This document shows, in pieces, positions 1 to 10,762 of a DNA stretch of 47,986 bases. Numbering within the stretch: position 1 is the first letter of the stretch; each line of letters begins with the position of its first letter. This DNA comes from Bacteroides sp. GTDB lineage: Bacteria; Bacteroidota; Bacteroidia; Bacteroidales; Muribaculaceae. The notes under the pieces are model-generated. The model was not told the origin of the DNA. It worked only from the letters and a program-made list of their open reading frames with translations, and did not search any database. The position numbers were made by a program, and so were the translations under genes. The stretch covers positions 1 to 47,986 of the forward strand of contig JAAVDH010000030.1 of NCBI GenBank assembly GCA_014801865.1, read 5' to 3'.

Positions 1-118
1 GGCATCGTGACCGATAATAACTCTTGAAAAGCACCCGAAAAATCCTTTGTGATGAAAGCAAAAATTTCCGAACTCTCTCATAATAATTAATTTGGTTTAA
101 ATTCAAACACTCTCTAAG
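1..118. repeat. Partial copy of dispersed repeat upstream of first gene
   Basis: The first bases (GGCATCGTGACCGA at 1-14) match the centre of the palindromic element at 16974-17164 (GGCATCGTGACTGA, one mismatch). Both copies continue with a loosely similar A-rich stretch. At 96-118 a TTTAAATTCAAACAC core recurs, as at 40779-40806 and 40915-40931. The left half would lie outside the window. No clear TAnnTTTG box is seen before the first gene. Confidence 0.4.
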
Positions 119-127
119 ACGACAATC

Positions 128-1240
128 ATGGAAATAGGAGATATAGTACGCTTCCTCAATACGACCGGAGGAGGAAAAGTGACACGCATAGAAGGACAGT
201 TGGCTTACGTGGAGGACGAGGACGGATTTGAGACTCCGACTCTCATACGCGAATGTGTGGTGGTTGCCGCCGCTCCTAAAGAACCAACCTCGAAATTCGA
301 GGACTTCAACCCTAAGCCGAAGACTCCCGACGCACCCCCCTCAAAATATAAGGCACCCGCTCCGGAAACAGTAAGAAAGAGCGACGAGCTGGCCCCGGTA
401 GAGGAGACTCCCGAGGGTGAAAAACTGACCGTGATGCTTGCATACGAACCGCGCGACATCCGTCAGCTCCAGACTACGACCTATGACGCATATCTGGTCA
501 ACGACTCAAATTATTATCTGCTCTTTACGTACATGACCCGCAGCGATGACTCACAGTGGACCATTCGCTATGCCGGACGCATTGAACCCGGTATCCAGCT
601 CTATCTGGGCGAGGTGAAGCGCGAGGATCTCGCGGACATGGATCGTGTGGCCATACAATATGTGGCCTACAAGGAGGATAAGGAATTTCGCCTTAAGTCT
701 CCCGGAGCCATGGAGGCGCGACTCGACACTACGAAGTTCTGCCGTCTGCACTGCTTCCGCGAGAATGAGTACTTCACCACTCCCGTCATAGCCGTAACGG
801 TGGTAAAAAACGATGTGATATACAAGCCTCTGGCTGTTGACGCCGTAAGTCTTGAGGCCGAACTTAAGGCTAAGAAGAGAATCGACATACCTGCGCGTCG
901 ACCGCTCCAGAAGAATACTGCCGGAAAGTCAAGACCCGCCGCATCCAAGAATCCTAACGAACCTCTGGTCGTCGACCTGCATATCACGGAGCTGCTTGAC
1001 GACCTGCGCGGACTGTCCAATGCCGATATGCTTAACTGCCAGATAGATGAGTTCCGCAAGGTGATGGACGAGAATCTGTCAAATCATGGCAAGAAGATAG
1101 TGTTTATCCATGGTAAGGGTGAGGGAGTGTTGCGACAGGCGCTGATGAAGGAGCTTAACTATCGCTACAAGAAGCAGAAGGTGCAGGACGCTTCATTTAA
1201 GGAGTACGGTTACGGTGCCACACAGGTGACTATTGTCTGA
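128..1240 (+). CDS. DUF2027 domain protein with C-terminal Smr domain
   Basis: A 370-residue cytoplasmic protein without signal peptide or membrane segment. The N-terminus (about 1-60) resembles the small beta-barrel start of DUF2027 proteins. A Pro/Lys-rich linker follows (about 55-95), then a beta-rich middle domain. The last 90 residues form an Smr domain, recognised by VVDLH near 281 and FIHGKGEG near 327. In MutS2 and related proteins this domain binds or nicks nucleic acid. The function of the DUF2027-Smr architecture is unknown, so no substrate is assigned. It is the first gene of a tight run with the next two (9-bp and 3-bp gaps), which suggests co-transcription. ATG 128 is the only plausible start. 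Confidence 0.85.
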   Translation: MEIGDIVRFLNTTGGGKVTRIEGQLAYVEDEDGFETPTLIRECVVVAAAPKEPTSKFEDFNPKPKTPDAPPSKYKAPAPETVRKSDELAPVEETPEGEKLTVMLAYEPRDIRQLQTTTYDAYLVNDSNYYLLFTYMTRSDDSQWTIRYAGRIEPGIQLYLGEVKREDLADMDRVAIQYVAYKEDKEFRLKSPGAMEARLDTTKFCRLHCFRENEYFTTPVIAVTVVKNDVIYKPLAVDAVSLEAELKAKKRIDIPARRPLQKNTAGKSRPAASKNPNEPLVVDLHITELLDDLRGLSNADMLNCQIDEFRKVMDENLSNHGKKIVFIHGKGEGVLRQALMKELNYRYKKQKVQDASFKEYGYGATQVTIV

Positions 1241-1249
1241 GCGTAACCG

Positions 1250-2017
1250 ATGATACTGCTGTTTTCTGGCACGGGCAACACGCGCCGTGTGGCGGAACTG
1301 CTCCGCAATGATGGTGAACAGGTCATTGAGATGACCCGCATTCCCGATGCGCCTCTTAAGGTGAAAGAGGGCGAAAGGGTGGTGTGGATGTTCCCCATCT
1401 ATGCCTGGGGAATGCCGCGTCCCGTAAGCCGATTTATCAAGAGCGCAATCATAGAGTCCGATGCGCCCCATTATATGGTGTGCACATGCGGCGATGATAT
1501 CGGTCTCACACATATTGACTGGCGACGATGCATTGTGAGGCGAGGATGGCGCCCCGTGGCTACATTCTCCGTAGCTATGCCGAACACATACGTGCTGCTC
1601 CCGGGATTTGATGTCGACCCTCATGACGTAGTGGAGGCTAAATTATCGGCGCTCCCTGCGCGTGTCGATAAAATAGCGAGAGCCATACGCCACGGAGCGA
1701 GAGTGGACGACGTCGTGCCCGGTGCCATGGCGTGGATTAAGTCGCGCATACTCCGTCCGCTGTTCAATGCCTTCCTGATGTCACCTAAGCCTTTCAAGGC
1801 TCTGCCGGCATGTGTAGGGTGTGGCAGATGTGCCCGGAAATGTCCGATGCAGAATATTACCATGAGTAACCTCACAGGAGGCTCGCCGACTCCGGTATGG
1901 GGCAAAAACTGCGCCATGTGCCTTGCCTGCTACCATGGGTGTCCCTATCACGCGGTTGCCTACGGTAGTAGTACGCGCCACAAGGGGCAATATTCCGGCC
2001 CAATGGACGTTAAATAG
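1250..2017 (+). CDS. EFR1-type flavodoxin/ferredoxin fusion protein
   Basis: A 255-residue protein with an N-terminal flavodoxin-like half and a C-terminal bacterial ferredoxin half. The start, ILLFSGTGNTRRVAE, is the FMN phosphate-binding loop of flavodoxins. The C-terminal part has two CxxCxxCxxxC clusters, C188/C191/C194/C198 and C221/C224/C227/C231, each followed at the fourth cysteine by proline, as in 2[4Fe-4S] ferredoxins. It is probably a soluble electron carrier or small oxidoreductase. The family is common in anaerobes, but its partner is usually unknown. It lies 9 bp after the DUF2027 gene and 3 bp before the TonB receptor, so all three are probably co-transcribed. That does not by itself show a common pathway. 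Confidence 0.88.
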   Translation: MILLFSGTGNTRRVAELLRNDGEQVIEMTRIPDAPLKVKEGERVVWMFPIYAWGMPRPVSRFIKSAIIESDAPHYMVCTCGDDIGLTHIDWRRCIVRRGWRPVATFSVAMPNTYVLLPGFDVDPHDVVEAKLSALPARVDKIARAIRHGARVDDVVPGAMAWIKSRILRPLFNAFLMSPKPFKALPACVGCGRCARKCPMQNITMSNLTGGSPTPVWGKNCAMCLACYHGCPYHAVAYGSSTRHKGQYSGPMDVK

Positions 2018-2020
2018 AGT

Positions 2021-4450
2021 ATGAAGTCACTGTTCACCTCTATAATATACCCATTATTATCACTCATCGTATTGGCAATGCCTCTGGGGGCACTTGCCGA
2101 TGTCACTATTCACGGCAAGGTGTCGGACAGCGAAAACCAGCCGGTGGAGTTCGTGACCGTAAAAGTGGCCGGAACGGCCATTGGCACAGTCACCGGACTT
2201 GACGGCGGATATCGTCTGAGTTGCGCCGAGCGCGATACTCTCGTAATCACCTACTCATGTATCGGTTACGAAGAGCAGCGCCGCACGCTGATAGACGCCA
2301 AGGGCGACCTGACGCTCAACATACGTATGCAATCCTCCTCGCGTCAGCTCGGCGAGGTCGAGGTGTCGGAGATTAAGAAGCAGACCGGGTCGATGCAGAA
2401 ACTTGACGCCGGGTCATACAAACTTGCGGCCGACGCCACGGGAGGCAGCGTAGAGAGCCTTATTACGACCATGGCCGGCGTAAGTTCTTCAAATGAGCTT
2501 TCGACACAGTACTCTGTGCGTGGCGGATCATACGATGAAAACTCGGTGACGATCAATGGTGTGGAGGTTTACCGTCCTCAGCTCATATCCTCCGGACAGC
2601 AGGAGGGCCTGAGCATCATCAACCCCGACATGGTAGGCTCCATAGGTTTCTCCACAGGTGGCTTCACCGCCGAGTATGCCGACCGCATGTCATCGGTGCT
2701 TGATATCACATACCGCCAGCCCGAATCATTTGAAGGGTCTGTAGGACTGAGCCTCATGGGCGTCAATCTGGCTCTCGGACAGAGCAGCCGTAAGTTCTCG
2801 CAGCTCCACGGATTCAGATACAAGCGCAATTCATCAATGCTCAGCTCCATGGAGACCAAGGGCGAATACGACCCCGAATTCATCGACTATCAGGCCAACC
2901 TCGTTTGGGCCGTCACACCACGGTTTAAGGCTTCGATACTCGGCAATATCTCGGTAAACAACTACCGGTTCACTCCAGTAAACCGCACTACTAACTTCGG
3001 TACCGCCGAAGACGCCAAGCAGTTTACCGTATACTTCGATGGCCAGGAAAAAGATAAATTCGAGACCTACTTCGGAGCACTCAATCTTGACTATAAGGTG
3101 AGTAATCCTACCACCCTGTCGCTACAGACATCGGCCTTTCTAACCAACGAATTGGTCACTTACGACATCTCGGGTGAATATTGGCTTGATCAGGCCGGTA
3201 CATCGGGCGACTCCAATGCCGGAGGCGTGGGTGGCGAACTTGGTGTGGGCAAGTATCTCGAACACGCCCGCAACCGCCTTAAAGCCTCAGTGTTCAACGT
3301 GGGCCTCAAGGGTGCCACCAATCTGCGCAACCATTCCATCGGCTACGGCCTTTCATTCCGTTCCGAGAAAATCATGGACCGTGCGCGTGAGTGGGAGCTG
3401 CGCGACTCTGCTGGCTACTCCCTCCCCTCTACCGGCGACGCAGTAAGAGTGGTGTACAACCTCTCGTCACACCACGATATTTCCTCCACCCGCTTTGCGG
3501 CATACGCTCAGGACTCATGGCGTCTCAACACCTCGCGAGGACTCTTCACGATCAACGGCGGCGTGCGCCTCAGCTACTGGAGCTTCAATAAGGAATTTCT
3601 TCTCTCACCCCGTATCAATGTGGGATTCGTGCCCGAGGAACACAACCGCTGGGCGTTCCGCTTTGCTACAGGACTATATTATCAGTCCCCCTTCTATAAG
3701 GAATATCGTATGCCCGTCACCGACGATATGGGCAACACCATCATTGAACTCAACCGCGACATAAAGTCGCAGCAAAGCGTCCACTTTATCCTCGGCACCG
3801 ACTATACGTTCCGTGCCTTTAACCGTCCGTTTAAGCTCTCCGGCGAGGCATACTATAAGGCCCTCTCCAACCTTGTGCCCTACGAGATTGACAATCTCAA
3901 GATAGTCTACTCGGGCCTCAATCAGACGAGCGGCTATGCTACCGGTGTTGACTTCAAACTCTTCGGACAGTTTGTGCCCGGCTCTGACTCATGGCTAAGC
4001 GTGTCGCTCATGCAGACACGCGAGACACTCAACGGAGTGAAAGTGCCCCTGCCACGCGACCAGCGCTACAATATAGCTCTCTTTTTCACCGACTATTTCC
4101 CGAAGTTCCCCAAACTGAAGTTCAGTCTGCGCGGCATATTCTCTGACGGCCTTCCCGCCATAGCACCCCGCTCATCGCGCGACAAGGGCTACTTCCGTAC
4201 CCCTGCCTACAAACGCGTCGACATAGGATTCGCATACGGCCTCCTCACTCCGCTTGCCGAGGGAGAATCTCGTAGCGGATTCCTGCGCAACTTCAAGAGT
4301 ATCTGGCTCGGCGTAGACGTGTTCAATCTCTTCGACATATCCAACGTAAGTTCCTATTACTGGGTTACCGATGTCAACAACATACAATACGCAGTGCCCA
4401 ACTACCTTACCCGCCGCCAAATCAACGTACGTCTCACCTTTGACTTCTAA
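2021..4450 (+). CDS. TonB-dependent receptor, SusC-like with CarboxypepD_reg domain
   Basis: An 809-residue outer-membrane receptor. A signal peptide ends near residue 26 (LAMPLGALA). A carboxypeptidase-regulatory-like beta-sandwich follows (about 28-105, starting VTIHGKVSD), then the plug (about 130-230, with QYSVRGGSYDENSVTING) and a 22-strand type barrel. The protein ends in an aromatic residue (RLTFDF), as expected for BAM insertion. Such receptors import glycans, siderophores, vitamins or peptides using TonB energy. No SusD partner gene follows, so this is more like the solitary FecA/Cir-type Bacteroidetes receptors than a complete Sus pair, and the substrate cannot be read from sequence. 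The start is 3 bp after the ferredoxin stop, implying translational coupling. Confidence 0.9.
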   Translation: MKSLFTSIIYPLLSLIVLAMPLGALADVTIHGKVSDSENQPVEFVTVKVAGTAIGTVTGLDGGYRLSCAERDTLVITYSCIGYEEQRRTLIDAKGDLTLNIRMQSSSRQLGEVEVSEIKKQTGSMQKLDAGSYKLAADATGGSVESLITTMAGVSSSNELSTQYSVRGGSYDENSVTINGVEVYRPQLISSGQQEGLSIINPDMVGSIGFSTGGFTAEYADRMSSVLDITYRQPESFEGSVGLSLMGVNLALGQSSRKFSQLHGFRYKRNSSMLSSMETKGEYDPEFIDYQANLVWAVTPRFKASILGNISVNNYRFTPVNRTTNFGTAEDAKQFTVYFDGQEKDKFETYFGALNLDYKVSNPTTLSLQTSAFLTNELVTYDISGEYWLDQAGTSGDSNAGGVGGELGVGKYLEHARNRLKASVFNVGLKGATNLRNHSIGYGLSFRSEKIMDRAREWELRDSAGYSLPSTGDAVRVVYNLSSHHDISSTRFAAYAQDSWRLNTSRGLFTINGGVRLSYWSFNKEFLLSPRINVGFVPEEHNRWAFRFATGLYYQSPFYKEYRMPVTDDMGNTIIELNRDIKSQQSVHFILGTDYTFRAFNRPFKLSGEAYYKALSNLVPYEIDNLKIVYSGLNQTSGYATGVDFKLFGQFVPGSDSWLSVSLMQTRETLNGVKVPLPRDQRYNIALFFTDYFPKFPKLKFSLRGIFSDGLPAIAPRSSRDKGYFRTPAYKRVDIGFAYGLLTPLAEGESRSGFLRNFKSIWLGVDVFNLFDISNVSSYYWVTDVNNIQYAVPNYLTRRQINVRLTFDF

Positions 4451-4633
4451 TCTCTTGTCCACCGATAAGAGAATCTCTATATCGACATCAGGAGACCGTA
4501 AAGCCTTCACGGCCCCACAGCCTCCGATAAGTCCAATAAGACACGAAGTGTTAGCAAAAGTTAAATAGTGGACTTTTCCACGCTCGTTACTACATTGTAA
4601 CACTACCGCCACTTCCCTGTAAAAAAGACCTCG

Positions 4634-4641
4634 TAATTTTG
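4634..4641 (+). promoter_or_regulatory. Candidate -7 box (TAATTTTG)
   Basis: TAATTTTG matches the Bacteroidetes -7 consensus TAnnTTTG exactly. No good TTTG -33 element lies 19-21 bp upstream, so the promoter is only half supported. No ORF starts downstream. The first strong feature is the terminator at 4769-4811. Confidence 0.35.
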
Positions 4642-4811
4642 TAGCGTAATCAAGAACGAGTTTCAAAAGGAACTCTTGCTTAGATAATACTGACGAACAA
4701 TCATTATCAATCCAATCAGATTGCGTTTTTGCAACATAGTAATTAAGAGACCAATAACAACCAATTTAAGCGCGAGCTGTCGTTGAAGACACCTCGCGCT
4801 TTCCTTTTTTT
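4642..4811 (+). ncRNA. Candidate small structured RNA, about 165 nt
   Basis: This stretch has no ORF. It lies between a -7 box (4634-4641) and an intrinsic terminator (4769-4811). It can form several short hairpins: CAAG..GAGTT against AACTCTTG near 4650-4680, GATAAT against ATTATC near 4683-4708, and TTGC-GTTTTT-GCAA near 4727-4740. The ends are not complementary to each other, so it does not look like 6S RNA. It could instead be a long 3' untranslated region of the TonB receptor transcript. The rest of the 716-bp gap (4451-5166) holds gene debris, a direct repeat and the DUF4373 promoter, each listed separately. Confidence 0.35.
4769..4811 (+). terminator. Intrinsic terminator, 8-bp GC-rich stem and T run
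   Basis: AGCGCGAG (4769-4776) pairs perfectly with CTCGCGCT (4793-4800). It is followed by TTCCTTTTTTT. This is the strongest terminator between the TonB receptor (stop 4450) and the DUF4373 gene, and it reads on the + strand. Confidence 0.7.
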
Positions 4812-4863
4812 CCATCGCTCCTCTCCACTCCACCCCTCCTCCATCCAAGCATAGCATCTTCAC

Positions 4864-4910
4864 ATATCGCCTGAATTTCTAATTTGTAAATAGCTGATAT
4901 TGCTATTGAA
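4864..4910 (+). pseudogene. Remnant related to the 164-aa cassette gene
   Basis: This stretch aligns with 6663-6710 inside the gene at 6564-7058, with five substitutions and a one-base gap in 48 positions. The shared core is AAATAGCTGATAT(T/C)GCTA. The gap shifts the frame and an in-frame TAG follows, so it cannot encode the protein. Weak similarity continues a little upstream and downstream. It is a decayed relic of a second copy of the cassette gene, now on the other side of the DUF4373 gene. Confidence 0.6.
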
Positions 4911-4960
4911 GCACCACTTAAATCACCCGAAATTTGTATGAAAGGCCATGACACAGTCTA

Positions 4961-4997
4961 TTTACGGAGCAGAAACCAAAGTTTACGGAGCAGAAAC
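4961..4997. repeat. Two 16-bp direct repeats, period 21 bp
   Basis: TTTACGGAGCAGAAAC occurs at 4961-4976 and again at 4982-4997, spaced exactly two helical turns apart. The pair lies 170 bp upstream of the DUF4373 gene. Same-face spacing is what a DNA-binding protein or a replication initiator (iteron) would use. No third copy is seen. Confidence 0.6.
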
Positions 4998-5113
4998 GCC
5001 ACATAGTATAGAATATATTATAGAAGAGAAAATCATATAAAATCAGACAACAGGAATAGAGAGAAAAAAGAGAGAAAGGGCGGATTCGTCATATAGTAAA
5101 AGTTAAACAAAAG

Positions 5114-5121
5114 TAAATTTG
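5114..5121 (+). promoter_or_regulatory. -7 box (TAAATTTG) of the DUF4373 gene
   Basis: An exact TAnnTTTG match 45 bp before the start codon at 5167. The -33 position has no clear TTTG. Confidence 0.45.
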
Positions 5122-5166
5122 CCGGAAATAAATTTCTGACTTTTTTATCCCCAACCCTCACACAAT

Positions 5167-6225
5167 ATGGCAAGACCAAGAAAACAAGGACTCGAGTATT
5201 TCCCTCTGGATGTAGATTTCTTTGATGACGAAAAGATAATAGCCATCTCAGGCAAATACGGAGTGACCGGTGAGATAGTCACCTTACGGCTACTTACCGC
5301 CATATATCGCCGCGGATACTTCATAGAGTGGACCGAGCTTCTGGGCTACAAACTCATTCGATTCATAGATGGTCTCACCCAGGAATTGCTTAATGACATT
5401 ATTCTTCATCTCGTAAAGTGCGACTTCTTTGATCGTCAACTCTTTGAACAACACAATATTCTTACTTCACGTGGCATACAGCACCGCTATTTCCACTCTG
5501 TGTCAAAACGCACGCTTGACGACGATCTTCCCTATCTGCTCGTAAACACTACTGAAAACAAATCCACAAACTCCCGTAGGAATACTCCTACCGCCAATGC
5601 CAGCTCTACAAATACGGAGAAACCCTGTGCTCCTAATACTCCAAACACGTCTTTCCATCCCCTTACGCCAACGTCCGAAAGACCTCTCCCCCTCTCCCCA
5701 ACATACAATATGACGGTAAATGAAGAGATTAAGACAATGCTCGACAACAAAGAATGGTGCGACAGCCTTGGCCAAATCAACAATCTTTCACCGGATGAAG
5801 TGAAGCTGTATCTCCGAAGATTCGCTACAGAGAATTGCGACACCAGACACACATCTATTGATGATGCACGCTCACATGTGGCCCGATGGATTCGCAAGGT
5901 AATGGGAAGCAACACGACAAAACGAAATTCTATCGTATTGTCAGCCGTTCGAAATTCGGAAGCCGAAATTCGCCGTCGCCGCGATGAACGTCAGCTTAAG
6001 GAACGGCTTGAACGCGAAGCACATAATCGCGAAAAACAGACAGCAACGGAATATCTGAAGTCAAAAGGATTTGACCCTACCACAAACTTGGCCGAGCTAA
6101 TACGCAATCAGATAGCCAAAGATGAGAGCGACATCGAGAACGGTATCCTGCCACTTGCCGGAGGCACGGTCAGAATCCGTCGGGACAACAGCTCCGCGCA
6201 AGTGACGGAGGAAGCCCCGCTATAA
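5167..6225 (+). CDS. DUF4373 (Lin1244/Lin1753-like) domain protein, 3' end rearranged
   Basis: A 352-residue soluble protein. Residues 1 to about 95 are a DUF4373 domain (begins MARPRKQGLEYFPLDVDF), a winged-helix-like module common in phage and mobile-element replication or DnaD-type proteins. A Thr/Pro/Ser-rich linker follows (about 130-180). A second helical domain spans about 182-242 and is frequent in Bacteroidales DUF4373 proteins. Then comes a charged coiled coil (about 258-300). The reading frame ends EEAPL-stop. A 98%-identical copy of its last 101 bp at 7082-7182 continues instead into a longer acidic tail, so the present C-terminus is probably shortened by rearrangement. Iteron-like repeats and a -7 box lie upstream. 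A DNA-replication role is inferred from the family only. Confidence 0.8.
   Translation: MARPRKQGLEYFPLDVDFFDDEKIIAISGKYGVTGEIVTLRLLTAIYRRGYFIEWTELLGYKLIRFIDGLTQELLNDIILHLVKCDFFDRQLFEQHNILTSRGIQHRYFHSVSKRTLDDDLPYLLVNTTENKSTNSRRNTPTANASSTNTEKPCAPNTPNTSFHPLTPTSERPLPLSPTYNMTVNEEIKTMLDNKEWCDSLGQINNLSPDEVKLYLRRFATENCDTRHTSIDDARSHVARWIRKVMGSNTTKRNSIVLSAVRNSEAEIRRRRDERQLKERLEREAHNREKQTATEYLKSKGFDPTTNLAELIRNQIAKDESDIENGILPLAGGTVRIRRDNSSAQVTEEAPL
6115..6215 (+). repeat. 101-bp direct repeat, copy A (partner 7082-7182)
   Basis: It differs from 7082-7182 at two positions only (6123 T versus A, 6193 T versus C). It is the 3' coding end of the DUF4373 gene. The two copies lie 967 bp apart and bracket the two-gene cassette. 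Confidence 0.95.
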
Positions 6226-6290
6226 TATCTCTTCAACATTGATATCGCCCGACTCTACGAAGCGAAGCTGGTGAGAGATTCTCATACCCT
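6226..6290 (-). pseudogene. Fragment of a helicase 3' coding region (HTH_40-like)
   Basis: Read on the minus strand, this stretch encodes ISHQLRFVESGDINVEEIL. That matches the C-terminal helix-turn-helix of the neighbouring helicase (MSHLLRFVESGDLNLEEII). The nucleotide match is to about 7391-7440, with roughly 11 mismatches in 50. It is much more diverged than the adjacent 101-bp repeat (98%), so it may come from a different allele or paralogue, not a simple local duplication. It lies immediately after the DUF4373 stop, whereas the intact arrangement has about 130 bp more between these two sequences. Confidence 0.7.
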
Positions 6291-6372
6291 CCATCCCGGC
6301 ACACATTTGTATGAACATACACGTAATCTCAGATGTTCTTTTAACAAAGAATAAAGATAATAGCCTAAAATA

Positions 6373-6403
6373 TTTGCAGCTATTATAAAAAGTAGTAACT
6401 TTG
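6373..6403 (+). promoter_or_regulatory. Complete Bacteroidetes promoter of the two-gene cassette
   Basis: TTTG at 6373-6376, a 19-bp spacer, then TAACTTTG at 6396-6403. This is an exact match to the TTTG / TAnnTTTG consensus with ideal spacing. Transcription would start near 6410, about 20 bp before the ATG at 6430. Confidence 0.85.
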
Positions 6404-6429
6404 CAATATACAACCACTAAATTATAAAT

Positions 6430-6564
6430 ATGGAAACGACAAACACAATCCGAATCCCGAATCCTTCTAAGGAGTTGGTCGCTTTCATAAAGGAATCGCA
6501 GCAAGAGAAGAAGGAGCGCATGAAAAAAACCTGTGACAAATACCGTAAGCTAATCCACGGATAA
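6430..6564 (+). CDS. 44-aa small charged protein, putative antitoxin
   Basis: A 44-residue ORF starting METTNTIRIPNPSKELVAFI and ending in a Lys/Glu/Arg-rich helix. The TIRIP start followed by an amphipathic helix is reminiscent of a ribbon-helix-helix beta-strand plus helix, but the protein is too short to assign. It begins about 20 bp after a perfect promoter. Its TAA stop overlaps the next ATG (TAATG at 6562-6566), so the two genes are translationally coupled. A very small charged first gene overlapping a larger second gene, inside a mobile-looking segment, is typical of toxin-antitoxin or similar two-gene modules. Function is inferred from layout only. Confidence 0.6.
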   Translation: METTNTIRIPNPSKELVAFIKESQQEKKERMKKTCDKYRKLIHG

Positions 6565-7058
6565 TGGAATCTGTAGAAACTTTAATTCCCGATAATGAGG
6601 GCAATCATTTAGTGATTGTCCTCAGTTTTTATGAGGATAGCCAAAAGATAGATACATTTCAAATACCACCTGAATTTTCCAATTTGGAAATAGCTGATAT
6701 CGCTATTGAAAAACTTAATCCTAACTATACTTTAGGCCTTAGTGCATTTCATTTGATGTGCAGATGGTTAATCGAGCAATTTTCTCTATTTCCAAATGCC
6801 GTATTCACTTTTATCTGTTCTACAGATCCTCTGGAAACTACTCATGGAAAGATTACACCTGAACAGTATCGTTGGAATTTATTTGAGGCCTTCTATCAGC
6901 GCAATATTAATAAGCTGAATATTCTTGGAATCGAATCCCAGGATATAGTAGTTGGACCCTATGGATACCAGACTTTTGCAAGAGTCTTTTACAGGAGTAG
7001 ACATGCCCCTATTATCCATCTTGTTATAGACCATATCAACAATAAATACACCCATTAG
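6564..7058 (+). CDS. 164-aa protein of unknown function, second gene of cassette
   Basis: A soluble 164-residue protein without signal peptide. It is rich in hydrophobic beta segments (HLVIVLSFY, AVFTFICSTD, VVGPYGYQTF, IIHLVIDHIN) and has a central helix (SAFHLMCRWLIEQFSLF). The block ICSTDPL..EQYRWNLFEAFY resembles the core of small Bacteroidetes proteins such as DUF6169. That is a remembered similarity, not a search result. It overlaps the 44-aa gene by one base and shares its promoter. Codon use is more AT-rich than in the neighbours, suggesting transfer. A decayed relative lies at 4864-4910. It could be a toxin, an effector of another two-gene module, or an unrelated accessory gene. Confidence 0.65.
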   Translation: MESVETLIPDNEGNHLVIVLSFYEDSQKIDTFQIPPEFSNLEIADIAIEKLNPNYTLGLSAFHLMCRWLIEQFSLFPNAVFTFICSTDPLETTHGKITPEQYRWNLFEAFYQRNINKLNILGIESQDIVVGPYGYQTFARVFYRSRHAPIIHLVIDHINNKYTH

Positions 7059-7081
7059 GCAAATTTGAAATAGTCGAAATT

Positions 7082-7264
7082 GCCAAAGAAGAGAGCGACA
7101 TCGAGAACGGTATCCTGCCACTTGCCGGAGGCACGGTCAGAATCCGTCGGGACAACAGCCCCGCGCAAGTGACGGAGGAAGCACCAGCGGATCAGCCGGC
7201 CGAAGAGCCGGCTCCGGTTGATGAATCGACAGAGGTGTCAGCGTCAGCAGCCGATGCGCGATAA
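7082..7264 (+). pseudogene. Orphan C-terminal tail of the DUF4373 gene, repeat copy B
   Basis: An open frame without its own start. The first 101 bp repeat 6115-6215 at 98%. The frame then continues through an acidic tail (PADQPAEEPAPVDES..) to TAA at 7262-7264. It overlaps the helicase 3' end (stop 7192) in antisense. The likely ancestral gene ran from 5167 straight into this tail, before the cassette separated them. The sequence just before it (AATTTGAAATAG, about 7064-7075) resembles the internal cassette-gene motif AATTTGGAAATAG at about 6681, which may mark the recombination junction. Confidence 0.75.
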
Positions 7265-9597
7265 TGGCGGATGACGGCATAGATATCGGTGGGATGTATT
7301 CCCGGGAGATGTTGCTGAAGCTCGGCAACGGGAGTTTCCGGTCCATATTGAGCCACGACACGATTGATGGCCTCAGCCTGATTCACGCCTATGATTTCTT
7401 CGAGATTAAGGTCACCCGACTCTACGAAGCGCAGCAGGTGGGACATAATGGTCGATGGCGCCAACTGACGTTCCTGTGCTATCTCCTCGCGCGTTGCACC
7501 CTCACGGAAGCGCTTATAGGTAACATCCCACGACTTGGGCTGATTAGCCTTTTCTATACGTTTACGCTCTCTTTCGGCCTCGCGCGCCAGCCGACGCTGC
7601 TCACGGGCCTCTTCACGAGCCTCTTCGCGCTGCCGGGCCCTCTCTTCACGCGACGGGCCCGAAATCTGACCCATAAATGCCCTGCGCTTTTCGTCCGATA
7701 TACTTCCTGATGTCCTTGCCATCGTCTTACGCGGGCTCCGTCCTGAAGCTTTGCCCGCAGCCTTGCCACCACCGCTGAGTATTGCCTTCTGCTTGAAGCG
7801 CAGATAATTCTCCACAGTGAAGCCCGACTCTGCGATATTCTTAAGCAACAGCACCTTATGGGAGTATGCCAATACGAGGTCATCGCGTATGGCGTCGAGG
7901 CGCTTCATGACCGTCTTATTGCCGCTATTGACCGACTTCACATCCTTGATACGCTGCCCTATGAGGTCAAGCATCTTATCCATGAAGTATCCTGCACTCT
8001 TACGAACTCTCACACCAAACTCCTCTCCGGTAAGAAATTCGTAAGGCTGCGAAAGTATGAGCCGGCTCCATTTGTGCGACACCTCCGTAACCTCCGTTGC
8101 CATACGCTTCATCACCTCACCTTGGTCACGGGTCACTCCGGGGAACATATTGTGAAACGACTCGGCAAGTATACGTGTCAGTCTCTCCTGCACCTCCGCC
8201 AGTTCGGCAAAGTCAAACAGCTTGATAAGCAATGTCGAGAAGTAAGCCCGTTCTATTTCGGGCAGACGATTGATAGAGCGCTCCGCCTCCGATTCCTGAG
8301 TGGAGATAAACCGCTCCACACGTCCGTCCACCGTGATGGCAGCCGGAGTAATAGGCGAACTCAGTACCAGCCCCTCGAGCGTGCGGCAACGGCTCAGAGC
8401 CACATACACCTGCCCCGGAGCAAATGACTGCCCTGCATCTATGATGGCATGCTCGAACGTCAGACCCTGACTCTTGTGTATCGTTATGGCCCACGCAAGC
8501 CTAAGTGGCAACTGCGAGAATACACCCTGCACCTCGGTCGTCACCTCCTGAGTCTCGGCATTGACCACATAGCGCGCATTTTCCCATTTCTGAGGACCCA
8601 CTACTATGTCATAGTCTTCACCTACGCAGCGCACGGCCACACCATCCTCCTCGAAACCGACCACATGGCCTATCTTGCCATTGTAATACTTACGGTCAGG
8701 CGACGGATCGTTGCGCACGAACATCACCTGCGCCCCTATCTTGAGCGTCAGAGCCGAGTCGGTAGGATATGAATAATCCGGAAAAGTGCCCTGCACCTGA
8801 GCGTGAAACGTCTGCTGCGCCCCTTTCAACAGTAACAACTGCGTATGATTATAGTCGTCAGCGTATGAGTTATGAGTCGTAAGACGTATATAGTCACTCC
8901 CGTCAGCCGGACGGAAGGCCGGGTCATATTTCGCCGCCAATGCCTTCAGGTCGGCCTCCGTGAGGCAATTATCGCGTACATTGTTGAGCAGCGATATAAA
9001 CCGCTCGTCCTGCTGGCGAAACACCTTCGTGAGCTGTATCGTCACATAGTCAATCTGCGCCAACGCCCGGCTACTGAAAAAATAGGGCGTATCGTAGTAA
9101 TTATGGAGCACCTCGAGATCGGCACCCGTCACTACGGGCGACAGCTGCTGCAAGTCGCCTATCATCAGCAACTGTACTCCACCGAACGGTAGCGAACTAC
9201 GGCGTATACGTCGCAACACATGGTCTATGGCATCAAGAAGGTCGCCCCTGACCATAGATATTTCGTCAATTACCAGGAGGTCGAGCGCACGGATTATACG
9301 CAGTTTATCCTTCGAAAACGAATACTTATCCTTCACATCCGAGCCGGGGATATATGGCGTCAGCGGCAGTTGGAAAAACGAATGAATCGTCACGCCACGC
9401 GCATTGATGGCGGCCACACCCGTAGGAGCCACCACAGCCATCGTCTTGCAGCTGTGTTCGCGCAGATAGCGCAGAAACGTTGTCTTACCCGTGCCGGCTT
9501 TACCGGTAAGAAAAATGCTGACGCCCGTGGTCTCCACGAAGCGCCAAGCATTAATCAGTTCAGGAGTCTGTGTCTGGATATTCTGTATTTCCATCAA
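7192..9597 (-). CDS. PIF1/RecD-like SF1 helicase with C-terminal HTH domain
   Basis: An 801-residue ATP-dependent DNA helicase. Walker A is GKAGTGKTT (32-40) and Walker B LLVIDEIS (107-114). The SF1B C-terminal motifs TIHKSQG and VYVALSR lie near 370-405. A middle segment (about 430-620) precedes a highly charged Arg/Glu-rich coiled region (about 650-690). A helix-turn-helix of the HTH_40 type follows (about 700-740: TREEIAQERQLAPSTIMSHL), then a low-complexity tail. The architecture is common in Bacteroidetes and is usually called AAA-family ATPase or helicase. A role at stalled forks or G-quadruplexes is inferred from PIF1. The gene lies 45 bp after prfB on the same strand. Part of its 3' region reappears in degraded form at 6226-6290. 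Confidence 0.88.
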   Translation of the reverse strand: MMEIQNIQTQTPELINAWRFVETTGVSIFLTGKAGTGKTTFLRYLREHSCKTMAVVAPTGVAAINARGVTIHSFFQLPLTPYIPGSDVKDKYSFSKDKLRIIRALDLLVIDEISMVRGDLLDAIDHVLRRIRRSSLPFGGVQLLMIGDLQQLSPVVTGADLEVLHNYYDTPYFFSSRALAQIDYVTIQLTKVFRQQDERFISLLNNVRDNCLTEADLKALAAKYDPAFRPADGSDYIRLTTHNSYADDYNHTQLLLLKGAQQTFHAQVQGTFPDYSYPTDSALTLKIGAQVMFVRNDPSPDRKYYNGKIGHVVGFEEDGVAVRCVGEDYDIVVGPQKWENARYVVNAETQEVTTEVQGVFSQLPLRLAWAITIHKSQGLTFEHAIIDAGQSFAPGQVYVALSRCRTLEGLVLSSPITPAAITVDGRVERFISTQESEAERSINRLPEIERAYFSTLLIKLFDFAELAEVQERLTRILAESFHNMFPGVTRDQGEVMKRMATEVTEVSHKWSRLILSQPYEFLTGEEFGVRVRKSAGYFMDKMLDLIGQRIKDVKSVNSGNKTVMKRLDAIRDDLVLAYSHKVLLLKNIAESGFTVENYLRFKQKAILSGGGKAAGKASGRSPRKTMARTSGSISDEKRRAFMGQISGPSREERARQREEAREEAREQRRLAREAERERKRIEKANQPKSWDVTYKRFREGATREEIAQERQLAPSTIMSHLLRFVESGDLNLEEIIGVNQAEAINRVVAQYGPETPVAELQQHLPGIHPTDIYAVIRHYRASAADADTSVDSSTGAGSSAG

Positions 9598-9642
9598 GGG
9601 AGGAAGTGGTGAAGGATATGCGGTACGATGAGAGAGAGACGA

Positions 9643-10762
9643 TTATTCTTCGGCTGTTTCGGCAAACTGCATGAGATATGCCTTGATGAATCCGTCGAGG
9701 TCGCCGTCCATTACGCCACCCACGTCCGAAGTCTGATGGCCGGTGCGGTGATCCTTCACGCGACGGTCATCAAACACGTAGCTGCGTATCTGGCTACCCC
9801 ACTCGATTTTCATTTTTCCGGCCTCAATCTTAGCCTGCTCCTGCATACGGTGCTGAAGTTCCTTATCGTAGAGTATCGACTTAAGCTGACGCATGGCGTT
9901 CTCCTTATTCTTAGGCTGGTCACGCGTCTCGGTATTCTCGATAAGGATTTCCTCCTTCTCTCCGGTATAGGGGTCGGTAAACTGGTAGCGCAGGCGTACA
10001 CCTGACTCCACCTTGTTCACGTTCTGACCGCCGGCGCCACCACTTCGGAACGTATCCCACGACAAGAGCGCGGGGTCTACCTTCACCTCTATGGTATCAT
10101 CGACAAGCGGCGTTACAAACACCGACGCGAACGAGGTCATGCGCTTGCCCTGAGCGTTGTAGGGCGACACACGTACCAGACGGTGCACACCGTTCTCACT
10201 CTTAAGATAGCCGTAGGCGAAGTCACCCTCCACATTGATAGTGGCCGACTTGATACCCGCCTCATCACCCTCCAGAAGGTTGGCGATAGACGTCTTGTAG
10301 CCGTGGGCTTCACACCAGCGCAGATACATACGCATCAGCATCGATGCCCAATCCTGACTCTCGGTGCCTCCGGCTCCGGAGTTGATCTTTAGTACCACAC
10401 CGAGCTTGTCTTCCTCGCGGCGCAGCATATTGCGCAGCTCCAGCTTCTCTATCTTTTCTATGGCGTCGGCATACAGAGCGTCGAGCTCTGCCTCCTCCAC
10501 AAGCCCCTCCTTGATAAAGTCGAAGGCAAGCGAAAGCTCTTCAACGGCCTTTTCTATTTCCGCATAGCCGTCAATCCATGCCTGAAGATCCTTGATCTTC
10601 TTCATCTGTATCTGCGCCTCCTTGGGATGTTCCCAGAAGTCGGGCACATGAGTGCGCAGTTCTTCTTCTTCTACTTGTATTTTCTTGCTGTCGATGTCAA
10701 AGATACCTCCTCAACGCGAGCTTGCGTTCAAAGGTCTCTTTTAATTGTTCCTGAGTAATCAT
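9643..10762 (-). CDS. prfB: Peptide chain release factor 2 with programmed +1 frameshift
   Basis: RF2 ends translation at UGA and UAA. The gene has two frames. ATG at 10762 opens 21 codons (MITQEQLKETFERKLALRRY..) that reach an in-frame TGA at 10699-10697. Skipping one T continues in the main frame (DIDSKKIQVEEEELRTHV..) to the stop at 9643, giving 372 residues, the usual RF2 length. The catalytic GGAGGQ loop is present. The codon-recognition motif reads SPY where E. coli has SPF. An ORF caller starting at the internal GTG 10647 would lose the N-terminus. Neighbours on the same strand are the acyl-CoA ligase upstream (60-bp gap) and the helicase downstream (45-bp gap). Confidence 0.95.
10696..10711 (-). 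promoter_or_regulatory. prfB: prfB autoregulatory frameshift site
   Basis: Read on the minus strand the site is AGGAGGTATCTTTGAC. The Shine-Dalgarno-like AGGAGG (10711-10706) lies three bases before the slippery CTT, which is followed by TGA and C. This is the canonical RF2 signal: low RF2 lets the ribosome slip by one base and make more RF2. The strong internal SD stands out in a genome whose starts mostly lack one. Confidence 0.95.

What the first reader, a model, noticed from the sequence alone, without database searches (positions are those of the whole stretch)
6115..7264. Two-gene cassette bracketed by a 101-bp duplication of a host gene's 3' end
The last 101 bp of the DUF4373 gene (6115-6215) are repeated at 7082-7182 with two differences. 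Copy A now ends the gene with PL-stop. Copy B continues in frame into what looks like the original acidic C-terminus (to 7264). Between them sits a 44-aa/164-aa gene pair with its own promoter. This is the arrangement left when an element integrates at a gene's 3' end and carries a replacement end. The 98% identity suggests a recent event. No integrase is present, so the mechanism is open.
Basis: partly seen in the sequence, partly recalled or inferred. Interest (0 to 1): 0.8.

Follow-up and report, generated by a model that had tools for sequence, protein, structure and literature searches.

The report
Mobile gene pair with duplicated flanks
A small, toxin-antitoxin-like pair of genes that is scattered through gut Muribaculaceae sits here between two slightly different copies of its neighbours' ends, apparently because DNA from a related strain was joined on imprecisely, so a transposase-free way for such gene pairs to move can be seen in the sequence.

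Summary
The 101-bp repeat is real (107 bp at 96%; 2 differences in the core), but it is one of three repeat pairs here. A 52-bp relic of the 164-aa gene lies at 4859-4910 and a 53-bp relic of the convergent helicase's 3' end at 6227-6279, in the order relic-DUF4373-helicase relic / 44+164 pair-DUF4373 tail-helicase. Differences between copies fall mostly at third codon positions (15 of 21). This favours two diverged alleles of one locus joined end to end over a duplication made by an inserting element. The 44/164 pair is a conserved, selected two-gene module (relatives in 44 of 397 family genomes; 44-aa partner in 34 of 35 loci), mostly without shared flanks. Another copy has an empty site in a relative. 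Direct repeats flank 10 of 43 cassettes against 3 of 966 controls. 'Insertion with long target duplication' is known for restriction-modification genes. The module has no named family; a sister family touches DUF6169 below cut-off, and the fold resembles GNAT weakly. Toxin-antitoxin function is inferred. No relative of the window's own locus was found, so its empty site could not be tested.

The parts
4859..4910 (+). relic of a 164-aa-type gene (about codons 32-49), 87% to 6658-6710; upstream of DUF4373
   Evidence: 0 of 500 shuffles; nearest of 41 cassettes is the window's own
5167..6225 (+). DUF4373 / Lin1244_N gene, phage-type replisome organizer (352 aa); left allele's intact copy
   Evidence: Pfam PF14297 E 1.9e-25; phrog_16706 'replisome organizer' E 7e-54
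6112..6218 (+). copy A of the repeat: last part of DUF4373 coding sequence (core 6115-6215); G+C 0.60 against 0.46 for the gene body
6227..6279 (-). relic of the helicase 3' end (codes ISHQLRFVESGDINVEE against MSHLLRFVESGDLNLEE), 79%; 8 of 11 differences at third codon positions
6334..6403 (+). short palindrome TGTTcttttAACA (6334-6346) and promoter-like TTTG (6373-6376) N19 TAACTTTG (6396-6403) of the gene pair
   Evidence: read by eye; promoter consensus recalled, not tested
6430..6564 (+). 44-aa first gene of the pair, predicted single long helix (H14-43)
   Evidence: against three relatives dN 0.04, dS 0.39-0.61
6564..7058 (+). 164-aa second gene, start overlaps the first gene's stop by one base; DUF6169-related, weakly GNAT-like fold
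   Evidence: against two relatives dN 0.12-0.13, dS about 2.2 (saturated), third undefined
7079..7185 (+). copy B of the repeat: remnant of the DUF4373 3' end on the right-hand allele (core 7082-7182)
7186..7264 (+). in-frame continuation of copy B; overlaps the helicase end on the other strand
7192..9597 (-). PIF1/RecD-like helicase with C-terminal HTH_40, convergent neighbour (801 aa)
7394..7446 (-). helicase segment that matches the relic 6227-6279

Best explanation
The 44/164 pair is a horizontally moving two-gene module that looks like a toxin-antitoxin pair (small helical first protein, larger second protein, promoter-like site). At this locus it is the seam of a mosaic. The left part (164-gene relic, DUF4373, helicase-end relic) and the right part (44/164 pair, DUF4373 tail, whole helicase) are two diverged alleles of one ancestral arrangement, gene pair - DUF4373 - helicase. 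One allele had lost the pair, the other most of DUF4373. An imprecise recombination joined them head to tail: homologous on one side, illegitimate on the other, as when DNA from a related strain is taken in. The cell thereby gained the pair and kept an intact DUF4373 and helicase, and the redundant ends remain as the repeats. Shown: three collinear repeat pairs, their codon-position bias, the spread and selection of the module, repeats at other copies, one empty site elsewhere. Inferred: the two-allele history, the recombination type, the toxin-antitoxin function.
For: Three repeat pairs in the same order on both sides. Differences lie at third codon positions in 8 of 11 (helicase piece), 3 of 4 (DUF4373 piece) and 4 of 6 (164-gene piece), although one copy of each is now a dead fragment: 15 of 21, p 0.0004 against one third, 0.013 against 0.45. 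L282 shows the same, 8 of 12. The relic 4859-4910 is nearest to the window's own cassette among 41. Module: 44 of 397 family genomes, sister-family matches and fragments included; 44-aa partner upstream in 34 of 35 loci; dN far below dS; 4 pairs with long shared flanks among 41 loci. Flanking direct repeats in 10 of 43 cassettes against 3 of 966 cross-locus pairs, Fisher 1.7e-12, and 4 of 34 against 8 of 1640 random positions, the eight from 3 loci. Empty site of the L086 cassette: G222 has both flanks at 82-83% with 43 bp between, against 798 bp in G191.
Against: Identity differs between the three pairs (96, 87, 79%), which one joining of two alleles explains only if divergence was uneven. 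Over all six coding repeat segments the third-position share is 24 of 39 (p 0.0003 against one third, but 0.028 against 0.45 and 0.10 against 0.5; a working copy alone would push the null above one third); L082 (1 of 4) and L097 (0 of 2) do not show it. No genome with either parental allele was found. The one clear empty site (L086) has no long repeat. No toxicity is shown, and no toxin or defence family was hit.
Confidence: 0.5

Rival explanations
1. Insertion with long target duplication. The cassette entered near the 3' end of DUF4373 and the target was copied on both sides, as described for restriction-modification genes in Helicobacter pylori; the copies then diverged.
For: Direct repeats of 14 to 107 bp flank 10 of 43 cassettes. 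In L274 (21 of 22 bp) and L276 (14 of 14 bp) they lie directly at the presumed cassette ends, and in three sister loci (L274, L276, L282) the left copy ends 94-99 bp before the small ORF. Precedent: passages of PMC1643837.
Against: Does not explain the relics at 4859-4910 and 6227-6279, the 200-bp length difference between the copies, or the third-position bias. Left ends are not fixed elsewhere: 71 bp in L284 and 136 bp in L097, about 180-280 bp in the main family. L284's repeat probably lies inside the cassette and it shares its site with L282.
Confidence: 0.25
2. Tandem duplication of a unit [44/164 - DUF4373 - helicase end] within one genome, followed by deletion of most of the pair in the first unit and most of DUF4373 in the second.
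For: The order relic - DUF4373 - helicase relic - pair - tail - helicase is what it predicts.
Against: After duplication the dead fragments should drift over all codon positions and diverge alike, but 15 of 21 differences are at third positions and identities are 96, 87 and 79%.
Confidence: 0.17
3. Assembly artefact: reads of two strains were joined in the metagenome assembly, making a false tandem of two real alleles.
For: 70.8%-complete assembly in 46 contigs; the two halves look like alleles of one locus.
Against: The same kind of flanking repeat occurs in several other assemblies, and a false tandem would still need reads that cross the 6279-6430 seam.
Confidence: 0.08

Closest known systems
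Insertion with long target duplication of restriction-modification genes (Nobusato et al. 2000; seen only as cited in passages of PMC1643837 and PMC4978471)
   Same: A gene unit flanked by long direct repeats of the target and variable between strains; described there as suggesting a new mechanism of gene mobility.
   Different: Other genes, other phylum. Here copies differ mostly at third codon positions and a second and third repeat pair surround the site, so duplication at insertion is not the favoured origin.
Homology-facilitated illegitimate recombination, and effector-immunity module displacement in Vibrio cholerae (passages of PMC5361080; start of the abstract of PMC3240628 in the listing)
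   Same: A small gene module enters by homology on one side and an illegitimate join on the other, leaving 3' ends of displaced genes behind.
   Different: No secretion cluster; the repeated ends belong to unrelated neighbours (DUF4373, helicase, others).
DUF6169 (PF19666)
   Same: A sister family member (L100) matches it at E 4e-4, 20.9 bits; the sister profile finds the window protein at E 2.5e-13.
   Different: Below the curated cut-off of 27; the window protein itself has no DUF6169 match at E up to 1.
GNAT-type toxin-antitoxin pairs (AtaT/TacT, recalled)
   Same: Small partner gene plus a protein whose structural neighbours are largely GNAT enzymes (Foldseek E from 2.3e-3).

Membership tests
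Type II toxin-antitoxin system | two-gene operon, small first gene directly before the second | tested here: met
   34 of 35 loci, 26 of the 34 with a one-base overlap; sister family 18 of 19 loci, L285 the miss
Type II toxin-antitoxin system | second protein toxic, first neutralises it | not testable with these tools
   needs expression
Type II toxin-antitoxin system | sequence match to a described toxin, antitoxin or defence family | tested here: not met
   44-aa and 164-aa proteins: nothing above a curated cut-off in Pfam or NCBIfam, nothing at E up to 1 in PADLOC
Type II toxin-antitoxin system | patchy, horizontally spread distribution | tested here: met
   44 of 397 family genomes; 4 pairs with long shared flanks among 41 loci (DNA-level comparison of 3 kb per side)
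Insertion with long target duplication | unit flanked by long direct repeats, more than chance | tested here: met
   10 of 43 against 3 of 966
Insertion with long target duplication | copies arise from the target at insertion (empty site with one copy) | tested here: inconclusive
   no relative of this locus; codon-position bias speaks against it; L086 empty site has no long repeat
DUF6169 (PF19666) | score above the curated cut-off | tested here: not met
   window protein none at E up to 1; 1 of 10 members scanned matches, 20.9 bits against 27
GNAT acetyltransferase | GNAT fold with acetyl-CoA site | tested here: inconclusive
DUF4373 / Lin1244_N | Pfam PF14297 above cut-off | tested here: met
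   89.8 bits against 25

The most novel reading that the evidence does not exclude
The 44/164 module is itself a minimal transposase-free mobile element: one of its proteins, or a host factor acting on its ends, directs it to the 3' ends of genes and makes target duplications of variable length (14 to about 107 bp), with a left end about 96 bp before the first gene in part of the family.
Probability: 0.07. Interest if true: 0.85.

Novelty: new variant of a known kind. Interest (0 to 1): 0.55.

Why it matters
How toxin-antitoxin and other small selfish gene pairs spread without a transposase is an old question, and the evidence I know of comes largely from restriction-modification genes in Helicobacter (recalled). 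A family of small modules with dozens of copies, measurable flanking repeats, an empty site and decayed copies makes the question testable in gut commensals. The codon-position test used here can separate 'duplicated at insertion' from 'two alleles joined' without an empty site.

Tried and rejected
tRNA-type integration: no tRNA in 1-10000; only four proteins of the window were scanned against Pfam, none a recombinase. Plasmid or phage carriage: no tblastn match of the 164-aa protein at E up to 0.01 in plasmids or phages; two IMG/VR contigs. Known family for the pair: weak matches only, Pfam E 0.012 and 0.07 below cut-off, PHROGs E 0.18 and 0.33, none in NCBIfam or PADLOC, none among solved-structure sequences. 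Empty site of the window: none (0 of 39 loci hold both DUF4373 and helicase). Empty site of L088: only a 32% relative of the left gene beside the pfkA-like gene in G286 (one of 19 relatives looked at), weak. L069 and L079 searches gave no clean empty site in their listings; the loci were not read. A third 164-gene relic at 7062-7091 beats 1000 shuffles against the first relic but not against the gene (170 of 1000 reach it) and was looked at after the fact: not counted. Repeats of L284 (probably internal, same site as L282) and L080 (far from the ends) are weak members of the ten. One search placed L284's small ORF wrongly by 23 bp; one search gives the corrected edge, which breaks a pattern that I had first read as four of five. 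Rows dropped: fragments L091, L093, L094, L096, L098, L285, L286, and flanks too short L078, L084, L112, L279, L280. The gene caller is crude (longest ORFs) and some of its loci share a site. Literature: no paper holds the word DUF6169; the listings (3 of 3 papers; 12 of 50; 12 of 22; 15 of 19) show no title on this module; no wider claim is made.

Full report
Observation. The 101-bp repeat is present as described and extends to 107 bp at 96% identity. Two further repeat pairs belong to the same locus: 4859-4910 matches the inside of the 164-aa gene (87%), and 6227-6279 matches the helicase 3' end (79%). None of the three scores is reached by 500 dinucleotide shuffles. The order on the left is gene-pair relic, DUF4373, DUF4373 end, helicase-end relic; on the right gene pair, DUF4373 end, helicase.

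The genes. DUF4373 here is a phage-type replisome organizer, with a paralog on contig C6 of the same assembly. Its last 107 bp have G+C 0.60, like copy B and the following bases (0.62), against 0.46 in the gene body. The 13 relatives examined end differently and none has a match to the copy-B tail better than E 0.37. The 'original acidic C-terminus' reading is therefore unproven; the same bases code for the helicase end on the other strand.

The module. The 164-aa protein has relatives in 44 of 397 genomes of the family, sister-family matches and fragments included, and at 33 loci in a collection of 84,980 species. The 44-aa protein precedes it in 34 of 35 fetched loci, in 26 of the 34 with a one-base overlap. 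Against three relatives both genes show purifying selection, although dS of the larger gene is saturated and once undefined. A sister family has the same two-gene layout with a similar 44-aa partner in 18 of 19 loci scanned; one member touches DUF6169 below cut-off. The model of the 164-aa protein is confident (pLDDT 88), but its structural matches are weak, largely GNAT enzymes. The 44-aa protein is predicted as one long helix.

Mobility. Of 41 loci compared over 3 kb per side at the DNA level, four pairs share flanks of 2 kb or more and six share shorter stretches, so most copies lie at sites without detectable common flanks. For the L086 cassette, G222 carries both flanks (82-83%) with 43 bp between them instead of 798 bp, and G245 has a decayed cassette at the same place. 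Neighbours are convergent in 11 of 34 loci against 34 of 243 background pairs, p 0.010, with a crude gene caller and some loci that share a site.

Flanking repeats elsewhere. With random positions as control, 4 of 34 cassettes against 8 of 1640 positions (the eight from 3 loci) have a strong left-right repeat, p 6e-5. With left and right flanks of different loci as control, 10 of 43 against 3 of 966 reach score 12; leaving out the five known before that test, 5 of 38 (Fisher 3e-6). Examples: L088, 76 bp, a terminator-like hairpin plus the last 18 bp of a pfkA-like gene; L282, 68 bp, the end of a 521-aa gene including its stop; L274, 22 bp across a stop codon; L276, 14 bp. The other 33 of 43 show no repeat beyond the control range at that score.

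Mechanism. If the copies were made by the insertion, the now useless copy should drift at all codon positions. Instead 8 of 11, 3 of 4 and 4 of 6 differences at this locus (15 of 21; p 0.0004 against one third, 0.013 against 0.45), and 8 of 12 in L282, are at third positions. Over six coding segments it is 24 of 39; two loci (L082, L097) do not follow. The simplest account is that two alleles which had diverged while still coding were joined by an imprecise recombination, one bringing the gene pair. Insertion with long target duplication (cited in PMC1643837, passages) and in-place tandem duplication remain possible. No parental allele was found, so confidence is moderate.

Comparison. The outcome resembles insertion with long target duplication of restriction-modification genes and the displacement of effector-immunity modules, for which its authors propose homology-facilitated illegitimate recombination (PMC5361080 passages). 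Flanking repeats around moved genes are also reported in Arabidopsis (PMC2869330 passages). What I have not met in these searches is the gene family and the two-allele signature.

Noticed in passing
window 4961-4976 and 4982-4997: Exact 16-bp direct repeat TTTACGGAGCAGAAAC, starts 21 bp apart, upstream of DUF4373.
   Followed up: no
window 6430-7058: Against the same relatives the 44-aa gene has dS 0.39-0.61 while the 164-aa gene has dS about 2.2 or undefined; the two halves of the operon may have separate recombination histories.
   Followed up: no
L283, L278, L275 left of the small ORF; several main-family loci: A TGTTAATAAT-like motif, in L283 part of an inverted repeat TGTTAAT-N18-ATTAACA, lies near the left end of several cassettes: a candidate operator (read by eye).
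   Followed up: no
window 4726-4799: Short matches (32 and about 74 bp) to this intergenic stretch in G014 and G016, left of the site.
   Followed up: no
L017 (own contig C6, 10500-16500): A DUF4373 paralog sits directly before a frame that looks like a DNA cytosine methyltransferase, as in a prophage (methyltransferase by eye).
   Followed up: no
L135, L136: Two IMG/VR contigs carry the gene pair; whether they are viral or bacterial flanks was not examined.
   Followed up: no
window 7062-7091: Weak resemblance to the gene-pair relic at 4881-4911, noticed after the fact.
   Followed up: partly
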